A DNA stretch of 64,000 nt from Acarospora socialis. Its lineage: Eukaryota; Ascomycota; Lecanoromycetes; Acarosporales; Acarosporaceae. Each line of letters begins with the position of its first letter. The stretch's first letter is position 1. Below are positions 27,001-30,000 of this stretch, piece by piece. A program made the translations under genes and the position numbers. A model generated the notes under the pieces. That model searched no databases and was not told where the DNA came from. It saw nothing but the letters and a program-made list of their open reading frames with translations. The DNA is taken from NCBI GenBank assembly GCA_025617375.2, contig JAMYGW020000015.1, forward strand, positions 183,526 to 247,525, written 5' to 3'.

Positions 27001-30000
27001 CGAACTTTTGCTTAATGAGATAAACACAGTGTTTATCTCGTGTTTCCAGAGTTATTTCAAGACTGGCATAACCTTTTTTTGAAAGTTGAAAACAACCATC
27101 CCCATCAATTAGACCAGCTAACCATTCATGGAATTTTTTTTCTTTATTAGAATTAACACTTGATGTTGAAAACAAACGTATGGCCTCTGAGATTCCTACT
27201 CACATGCTTAATCCTTTAGACATTGAAGTCTTAGATTTCAAGTTTATAAAAAAACTTGGTGCTTTGGTTATCGGCGGGTTGTTAGTAGGGAAAAATAATA
27301 TTCCTTGTACAAACATTGTTACATTTTTTAGATTTATCTTTATAATATTAAAAAGATTATTTAAATTAAAAGTACATAAAAAAGTAGTTTGTATTATATA
27401 AGTTACTAATTTCCTGCATATAGTTTGTTGCGTTAAATAAAAATATATATTTAAAGGGCCATCTTGACCGAATACGCTCTTGTTAGAGCTTGCCGAGATA
27501 GTAGTACTTATTATACCGAATCCTGGAATTATTAATATATAACAAAAAAATTTGATTAATCGAATAGTTAACAAGAATTTATTCTAATTAATACTCAAGA
27601 ATTTAACATTCTTGTTAGGACTTTATCTTAAACTGTATTATCACTTAATCTGTTCATTGTATTTTTTAATTTCATAATTTTTTCAAGTCCATCTTTATTT
27701 AAATGATCTCTATTTTGAATTATTAAATATGCTTTTCTTCATTTTAAATAGTTAATATGTTTACTAGATAATAAATGAAAGTAATCAAAATAATTAATAA
27801 CATTTTTGGCTGATCCAAAACTAGTAGATCCGTAGTAGTAGGTATCTTGGCTTTTTCTATAGCCTATATTACCTCCAAAAAAGTCTTTAATTAATAGTAA
27901 AACACTATCTTTTTTTTGATCAATTTGGAAATTTAATCGAACTTCAACTTTATTACTACGATTAAGTATTTTTATTTGAAAACTAGCATCAGCATCAGAA
28001 AAACCAGCTAACCAAGGGTTTTTTAAATCCTTATCTAAATTTAATTTTAAATTAATTTTTTTTCTAAATTCAGCATAATTATCATTATTTAATATATTAT
28101 TAGTTATTTGATAAAATTTATTTTCTGTTCTAATTTTACCATTTATTAAATTAATTACTTTTTCCATACCTTTTCTAGCAGCTATAACTAGAATAAAAGC
28201 ATTTTTATCTTTAACTTTTTTAACGCTTGCAAAACCTAATCGTTGTTTTATATAATAGGCTAAAGAAGCATCTAATGAATGAAATACAATAACTAATTGT
28301 TGTTTACTACTAAAATGACCATCACCGTCTATTAAACCTGCTAAATAATGCCCAAATTGATCATCACTAGCTGGCCTTAAATGTTTAGGTACATGTACAG
28401 AAATAGGTTTTACATTTTCTGTGTTTATTACAGTTTCGTTGCATAAAGTCTCTGAGGTTCCATTTTTAACATTAATAAAAATGTTACCTGCTGATAAACT
28501 TCATTGTTTTAACTTTTTCACTAGATCATTTAAGATGGAGTATTTAAAACTAAATATCGAAGTAATCCCAGCAAACAGCAACGTTAAGAAGCCTATATAT
28601 TTGACTTCTGGATGCAATTAAAAAAATTTTTTTTTTAGGAATATATCTGCTAAGGCATATTATTTAATACATGTATAAACATATCATGTATATAACGAGA
28701 ATGATAAACATCATCTAATCTTCAATATATAACCCTTACTTCCATTTGCCCATTGATCTTTTCTGTTTCTACATTTATGTTAAAATGTTTAAAGTCATCT
28801 ACGCTTCAATTATTCAAATTTAAAGGAATAAAATTAGTATAATTCGGAGATGTCTCAGTTTGATATCTCAAAATATCAAACTTAAAAAAGCAAATTTCAA
28901 AACCCCTTTGACCAATTACTCAAATTCTACCTGTGATATCATCTTTAGAAGCGTCGGCACCATCTCACACTTGGTTTAAAATAGCCTTTCAAGAAACACC
29001 CCCATCTGAGACAGGTCTCTTGACTTCCACGGCAATATGTGGGATTGCTCTACCATATTTAGTCCCTGGTGTTAAGTCAACTTTACTTACTGTATAATCA
29101 GGATGAAAGTTAGAACCTGCATTTTGTTCAGGTGCTATACATCACCCATTAACATACGGAAAGTAACATGAAAGAATTATATTTGTTAACCTTGATACTT
29201 CATCCTCATAAATCGGATAATAATCACTACCACGTGCAACATACATTCAGGAATTAGATGGAAAAGCAGCTACAGCTGCAGCATTAGCAGCTGCAGGATT
29301 AGTTTTATCAGACCTACGTTTTAAGTAATCTATAACAGCGTAGATTTGCTGTTCTTGATAGTAATTGCTTTGTAAAGGTAAAGTTACCAAAGAATGAGGT
29401 TTAGGTATCAAACTTAAAAAGTAATAAGCCTTAAGATCCCATAATTTTGTGCAAACAAAAATAAGCAAATAATTTTTTTTTTAATTGGACTCTATCTTTA
29501 TCCTCTGTTATTTCATTTATTATTAAAATTAATTCATGCTTTAGCCAAAGGGTTGTAAGATAAAGCAGAATAAGCTCTTAGATCTTTTAATTGATAATAT
29601 TTATCTATTAAAAAAAATCTCTGTTTTTTATTAGAAAAAAGGGGATATTTAATAAGATAACTTTTAAAAAGCTCTATATCAGTTCTTGCTTGTATAGATC
29701 ATTTGTAATAACCATTTTGACCTTTATCAAAATATACCTCACCAGCAAAAACATCTTTAAAAGCAATAACATCAACTAATAATTTATTAGTTACAGATAT
29801 AGTTAATTGAGGATAGTTATTTTTCATAGAATAAGTAATAGTACCATCAGCATCAAAAAAACCAGAAAATCAACCATTATCTTTAGTAATGGCTGTAGGA
29901 TATATAATACTAATATTTAAATTAGAACATATTGATTCCAATTGTTTAACTCTTGAGGTATGTCTAATTTTACCGTTAATTCTATTAACTAACTCTAACA

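What the first reader, a model, noticed from the sequence alone, without database searches (positions are those of the whole stretch)
28650..29480. ORF joining a COX1 C-terminal tail to a PD-(D/E)XK nuclease-like domain inside cox1 intron 6
Seen: an intact 270-codon frame lies between the catalytic core of intron 6 and the 11-nt exon 7. It starts with a copy of the COX1 end ([14 protein letters not shown]) and continues into a region with PDY...EVK spaced as in PD-(D/E)XK nucleases. A G at 29469, 15-20 nt after the S element, would splice it in phase onto exon 6. Known: intron and terminal mobile elements in fungal mitochondria normally use LAGLIDADG or GIY-YIG enzymes. Inference: a third nuclease fold has been recruited for a mobile cassette that supplies its own cox1 terminus, possibly by alternative 3' splicing.
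Basis: partly seen in the sequence, partly recalled or inferred. Interest (0 to 1): 0.9.

Follow-up and report, generated by a model that had tools for sequence, protein, structure and literature searches.

The report
Tail-led nuclease-like ORF in cox1 intron
Inside an intron of a fungal mitochondrial gene sits a second protein-coding stretch that begins with a copy of the end of the COX1 protein and continues into a probable but unproven DNA-cutting enzyme, and other unrelated stretches in the same genome open with a similar borrowed tail.

Summary
The reading frame is real: 276 codons, 28650-29480 minus strand, with mitochondrial codon use. It starts with a COX1-like end (10 of 14 residues) and continues into a protein with a good PD...ExK motif. 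No relative turned up in the collections and libraries searched, and AlphaFold without relatives was uninformative, so the PD-(D/E)XK fold stays plausible but unproven. The frame lies between the group I intron's S element and exon 7. A 12-bp stem, its 3' arm unique on this strand of the window, joins the bases after S to the intron's last bases, so the frame probably sits in a P9-type loop and normal splicing to exon 7 is possible. The main new point is context: COX1-like tails stand at five junctions here (one of them weak). One is the native COX1-COX2 in-frame junction, a published Pleosporales trait; the others lead unrelated cargos. A related contig keeps the tail on a 37%-identical cargo placed after COX1's stop codon. 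The joined COX1 pieces are truncated, so the tail more likely serves the cargo (coupling or release) than COX1. New variant of a known kind.

The parts
28650..29480 (-). The ORF (276 codons, table 4): COX1-tail leader plus PD-(D/E)XK-like cargo (cargo C)
29367..29408 (-). COX1-tail copy [14 protein letters not shown]
28860..29264 (-). Putative PD-(D/E)XK core (ORF residues D128 at 29099-29097, E152 at 29027-29025, K154 at 29021-29019); fold not confirmed
   Evidence: motif; models and search uninformative
29488..29497 (-). S element (P7 3' strand) of intron 6, found by pattern
29476..29487 (-). 5' arm of the 12-bp P9-type stem, directly after S
28615..28626 (-). 3' arm of the same stem; its last base is the last base of intron 6
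30449..30459 (-). cox1 exon 6 (11 nt)
28604..28614 (-). cox1 exon 7 (11 nt)
28615..30448 (-). cox1 intron 6 (after nucleotide 720 in yeast numbering, worked out from the alignment)
29501..30472 (-). LAGLIDADG ORF of intron 6, in frame with exon 6
   Evidence: motif by eye
29466..29466 (-). First in-phase candidate G for an alternative 3' splice
21026..21067 (-). Native COX1 tail [14 protein letters not shown], followed in frame by COX2 (ORF 20153-21571)
21546..22271 (-). Sister cassette: diverged copy of the start of the last COX1 exon, COX1 tail (22068-22121), then cargo B
31902..33068 (-). Sister cassette: exon 5 reads on into a weak tail (ends LNSPIQS at 32802) and membrane cargo A
7577..7942 (-). 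Sister cassette: copy of the NAD5 C-terminus, tail PPKPHKFINSPLHS (7724-7765), short hydrophobic stretch

Best explanation
The ORF is a second coding cassette, probably a later arrival, in a P9-type loop of cox1 intron 720, in a fungal mtDNA of Pleosporales type. It consists of a COX1-tail leader and a probable PD-(D/E)XK nuclease. Shown: the ORF, the tail, its place between S and exon 7, the complementary arms, and the recurrence of COX1-like tails at five junctions in the window and on a cargo in a related contig. Inferred: normal splicing skips the cassette as a loop; the protein is made by COX1-coupled translation (read-in after alternative or missed splicing) or from ATG 29246; the nuclease helps the cassette or intron to spread; the tail is kept because it serves the cargo, most likely as the release or coupling point that already parts COX1 from COX2 in this lineage.
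For: Coding and code use. Tail. Stem: the 12-mer complement of the bases after S occurs once on the minus strand of the 64 kb, exactly at the intron end (its only plus-strand match is the arm's own complement), and the stem is in the minimum-energy fold of the 916-nt 3' part. Similar tails lead unrelated cargos. In L005 (same contig as L004) a cargo B homologue (36.8% identical over 117 residues, E 2e-23) follows the COX1 stop with a TAATG overlap (read) and opens MLGLHNPPKPHGFVTLQLKS, though COX1 has its own tail there. COX1 and COX2 share one frame in the window and in L006, with no Met between PLQS and the COX2 sequence; a polyprotein is proposed in print for Coniothyrium glycines (PMC6221350, passages). 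No ATG before codon 79. In L005, L006 and L009, the three fetched contigs that span the site, exons 6-8 are contiguous, so intron 6 and the cassette are dispensable; in the same three, exon 5 reads into the intron 709 ORF without a tail or cargo A.
Against: No homologue of the cargo found (one search gave only a chance match, E 0.93), no Pfam, NCBIfam or PADLOC match, phrogs only E 0.16, no solved structure (best E 0.83), no confident fold. No transcript data. Stem pairing probability in the fold is about 0.24-0.34, 44 of 3000 random 26-mers pair as strongly with the same arm and 333 of 3000 random pairs do; the placement is what counts. A tail captured from another species' cox1 would show conserved residues without having a function of its own. 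The exon 5 tail is weak (5 of 14 residues). Cleavage after PLQS is not shown.
Confidence: 0.45

Rival explanations
1. Relic of a terminus-carrying mobile ORF: an element of [COX1 end + endonuclease] once sat at the cox1 3' end, as in Allomyces and Glomus genes, then moved into the intron. The tail is a leftover without a role.
For: Such elements are documented for atp6, atp9, cox2 and nad3 (PMC3630166, passages). L001 shows one at cox1: two COX1 C-terminal copies (144 of 160 nt alike) around a LAGLIDADG ORF.
Against: The tail is kept on cargo B in L005 outside COX1 and follows a NAD5 copy, where no COX1 end is needed. The frame through tail and linker is unbroken.
Confidence: 0.3
2. Alternative terminal exon: splicing of exon 6 to G 29466 makes a truncated COX1-cargo fusion.
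For: Phase is kept. Exon-fused intron ORFs and their expression by alternative splicing are described for fungal mtDNA (PMC12308204 and PMC3073962, passages; Sellem and Belcour 1994 seen only in a reference list there). The copied exon start in 21546-22271 begins at the same ACT, after a G, as the true exon.
Against: 5 of 12 Gs keep phase. The 25-nt stretch up to the proximal site folds to nothing on its own (0 kcal/mol) against -8.2 for the long-range duplex. P10 favours exon 7 (by eye).
Confidence: 0.25
3. Free-standing intron ORF started at ATG 29246, giving 198 residues with the whole putative core; the upstream part is not translated.
For: Met79 lies before the core.
Against: 78 further codons upstream, including the tail, stay open in AT-rich DNA.
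Confidence: 0.15
4. The cargo is not a nuclease; the PD...EVK pattern is chance.
For: No profile, structure or fold support.
Against: Extended motif in 5 of 20000 shuffles and in only this one of 89 ORFs (pattern chosen after inspection). The weak core model has a helix and three strands, then two strands, with no second helix, which neither shows nor excludes the fold.
Confidence: 0.3

Closest known systems
Mobile ORFs that carry a host-gene C-terminus (Allomyces macrogynus atp6; Glomus atp6, atp9, cox2, nad3; PMC3630166, passages)
   Same: A copy of a host C-terminus in frame with a putative nuclease ORF; diverged from the native copy (30 of 42 nt alike)
   Different: Lies in an intron, not at the gene's 3' end; only the tail is carried and it cannot complete COX1; no LAGLIDADG or GIY-YIG match; the sister cassettes here carry cargo without a nuclease match
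PD-(D/E)XK homing endonuclease I-Ssp6803I (PMC3943268, passages)
   Same: PD...ExK motif type; intron-encoded
   Different: Bacterial (title of a cited paper); no sequence relation found; fold here unconfirmed
COX1-COX2 single frame of Pleosporales (PMC6221350, PMC5626475, PMC11167856, passages)
   Same: COX1 followed in frame by another protein (tail letters not shown in those passages)
   Different: Here a similar junction also precedes unrelated cargos
Intron ORFs fused to upstream exons and alternative splicing of group I introns (PMC12308204, PMC3073962, passages)
   Same: Possible way to express an intron ORF without its own start
   Different: The ORF here carries a COX1-terminus leader
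Pet127 (PMC9014873, abstract and outline)
   Same: PD-(D/E)XK protein acting in fungal mitochondria
   Different: An exoribonuclease, recalled as nuclear-encoded; I did not compare it with the ORF

Membership tests
PD-(D/E)XK nuclease superfamily | D...(D/E)xK catalytic motif in a hydrophobic strand context | tested here: met
   (regex made after inspection)
PD-(D/E)XK nuclease superfamily | alpha-beta-beta-beta-alpha-beta core fold | tested here: inconclusive
   models too poor; second helix not formed
PD-(D/E)XK nuclease superfamily | Match to a known family profile | tested here: not met
   Pfam, NCBIfam, PADLOC none; phrogs one family of unknown function at E 0.16
PD-(D/E)XK nuclease superfamily | Catalytic residues conserved among relatives | not testable with these tools
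   no relative found
PD-(D/E)XK nuclease superfamily | Metal-dependent phosphodiester cleavage | not testable with these tools
   needs purified protein
Terminus-carrying mobile ORF | Duplicated, diverged host C-terminus in frame with the ORF | tested here: met
Terminus-carrying mobile ORF | Inserted copy takes the place of the host terminus | tested here: not met
   lies in intron 6; the native terminus at 21026-21067 is intact
Terminus-carrying mobile ORF | LAGLIDADG or GIY-YIG endonuclease | tested here: not met
   no Pfam match
Group I intron peripheral-loop ORF | ORF outside the core with the 3' splice site still presented | tested here: met
   S at 29497-29488, arms 29487-29476 and 28626-28615; a prediction, not a probed structure
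Alternative 3' exon | In-phase acceptor | tested here: inconclusive
   in-phase G 29466, but 5 of 12 Gs keep phase
Alternative 3' exon | Spliced transcript | not testable with these tools
   no RNA data
COX1-COX2 type polyprotein junction | PLQS followed in frame by another protein | tested here: met
COX1-COX2 type polyprotein junction | Proteolytic release after PLQS | not testable with these tools
   needs proteomics

The most novel reading that the evidence does not exclude
The COX1 tail PPKPHxFxSLPLQS is a portable release and coupling signal of this lineage's mitochondria: it parts COX1 from COX2, and unrelated mobile cargos, one of them a PD-(D/E)XK nuclease, have copied it so that they are made as COX1 (or NAD5) fusions and cut free.
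Probability: 0.2. Interest if true: 0.85.

Novelty: new variant of a known kind. Interest (0 to 1): 0.6.

Why it matters
If right, mitochondria of these fungi use a polyprotein junction that mobile elements copy as an expression tag, which would make the question of how COX1 and COX2 are parted in this lineage directly testable. A mitochondrially encoded PD-(D/E)XK nuclease would also add a nuclease fold beyond LAGLIDADG and GIY-YIG to fungal mtDNA elements (that none is known there is recalled; see the listed searches for what was looked at).

Tried and rejected
Rfam at gathering threshold over the window (three tRNAs only) and at E<=5 on 20-40 kb gave no group I intron; the core was read by eye and by S-element pattern. 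Foldseek with the low-confidence core model gave 315 matches at E<=10, none at E<=0.001; of the 50 rows shown none is a PD-(D/E)XK nuclease by title. The membrane-cargo alignment A1 (3 of the 4 cargo A members noted) found no relatives in viral contigs; cargo A alone likewise. The cargo B alignment A2 found only the L004 contig again. A COX2 query gave one weak match (40% over a short stretch, E 2e-4) that was not read. A first guess of a basidiomycete source was dropped for Pleosporales type because of the cox1-cox2 frame; the species is not identified. The idea that the tail restores COX1 was dropped because the joined COX1 pieces are truncated. Codon figures for three LAGLIDADG ORFs were taken out of frame and are not used. 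An S-like stretch before exon 7 (AGATATATTCC) was weighed by eye as an alternative P7 strand and pairs worse. A closing stem like that of intron 6 was looked for around the 21546-22271 cassette; only A/T-rich 8-10-mers turned up, so the loop model is not shown there. HSDR_N_2 (PF13588) was sought in the L004 record: none; the control rang in 4 of 14 genomes.

Full report
What is there. The window is fungal mtDNA (27.6% GC; read with TGA=Trp) with cox1 on the minus strand. Exon 5 ends one base into the Trp codon that follows HLF. Intron 6 holds a LAGLIDADG ORF in frame with exon 6 (29501-30472), then an S element (29497-29488), then the ORF of the finding (28650-29480), then exon 7.

The ORF is real. 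It is open for 276 codons, against at most 179 in 500 shuffles. From the end of the tail on, Trp is TGA 7 of 7 times and GC3 (0.20) matches cox1-cox2 (0.215).

The tail is a COX1 end. 10 of 14 residues equal the native end, and four of those ten codons differ synonymously; 0 of 2000 shuffles score as well.

The nuclease claim is plausible only. The motif is D128...E152-V-K154 followed by a Q and a hydrophobic stretch; the extended pattern, written after inspection, matched 5 of 20000 shuffles and only this one of 89 window ORFs. Profiles, solved structures, phages and plasmids, two IMG/VR scans with cargo peptides, one scan of genome contigs (13 pattern matches, none a relative) and five related records gave no relative; the record searches had no positive control. 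AlphaFold without relatives gave mean pLDDT 34.5 (240 residues) and 48.7 (135-residue core).

Splicing. The 12 bases after S (29487-29476) are the exact complement of the last 12 bases of the intron (28626-28615), and that 12-mer occurs once on the minus strand of the window. The duplex energy alone is not rare: 44 of 3000 random 26-mers pair as well with the arm, 333 of 3000 random pairs do, and the pairing probability in a 916-nt fold is 0.24-0.34. The exact placement at both ends argues for a P9-type stem that holds the cassette as a loop and presents the exon 7 junction.

Context, the main result. The loose pattern [LS]P[LIVF][QH]S occurs 8 times in six frames of the window. Five of the 8 lie at junctions inside long ORFs: the native COX1-COX2 junction; this ORF; a copy of the start of the last COX1 exon joined to a COX1 tail and cargo B (the 102-nt copy is 88.2% identical in DNA and 85.3% in protein); exon 5 reading on to a weak tail and membrane cargo A; and a NAD5 end copy with PPKPHKFINSPLHS. 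Shuffles of the native end reached none of the four cassette scores in 2000 tries each, with a narrow margin for the exon 5 case (47 against 43). Cargo A has relatives at 57012-57905 and 1830-3101 and a weaker one in the nad5 ORF; none of these three shows the tail pattern at its start.

Related contigs. IMG/VR holds a few fungal mt contigs; of the four loci, L002 and L003 look bacterial or phage-like and were set aside. L004, L005 and L010 are one contig. There COX1 ends PLQSNIKGF-stop, and TAATG starts MLGLHNPPKPHGFVTLQLKS plus a cargo B homologue without the membrane stretch. L006 has COX1 and COX2 in one frame. L001 has a duplicated COX1 end around a LAGLIDADG ORF, and its COX1 is not seen to run into COX2. 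L005, L006 and L009 span the site and lack introns 720 and 731; in L008 exon 8 is preceded by non-exon sequence beside an ambiguous base, so 731 may be occupied there and 720 is not covered.

Reading. Tails on cargos that cannot complete COX1 suggest that the tail serves the cargo. The lineage already has a COX1 tail at an in-frame COX1-COX2 junction; PMC6221350 (passages) suggests a polyprotein, and PMC5626475 and PMC11167856 (passages) describe the pair as adjacent or fused. Reuse of that junction is the most economical functional reading; a relic of terminus-carrying elements (PMC3630166, passages) is the strongest rival. Searches for prior description showed no paper on a tail-led PD-(D/E)XK ORF in fungal mtDNA among the rows listed; several found hundreds of papers of which only 10 to 20 rows were shown, and most subscription papers are outside that library.

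What the check changed.

Noticed in passing
20153-21571 (-): COX1 C-terminus and COX2 share one open frame; L006 shows the same with no Met between them.
   Followed up: partly
8800-11070 and 7577-7942 (-): nad5 reads on into a membrane protein, and a second copy of the NAD5 C-terminus (115 of 126 nt alike) lies downstream with its own tail and short hydrophobic stretch.
   Followed up: partly
1830-3101, 31902-32828, 57012-57905 (-): Family of glycine-rich membrane proteins (31-38% identical) without a significant Pfam match, one fused to cox1 exon 5.
   Followed up: partly
42263-44807 (+) and 44968-48165 (-): Long ORFs that look like an integrated linear plasmid (DNA and RNA polymerase; names by eye, not searched).
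   Followed up: no
36829-37977 (-): cox1 exon 2 reads in frame into an unknown ORF whose first part has relatives in L009 and L006.
   Followed up: no
17833-18384 and 19171-19872 (-): Two related ORFs with a hydrophobic N-terminal stretch, in style like cargo B by eye.
   Followed up: no
L001:6038-7502: COX1 C-terminus duplicated around a LAGLIDADG ORF, a terminus-carrying element at cox1.
   Followed up: partly
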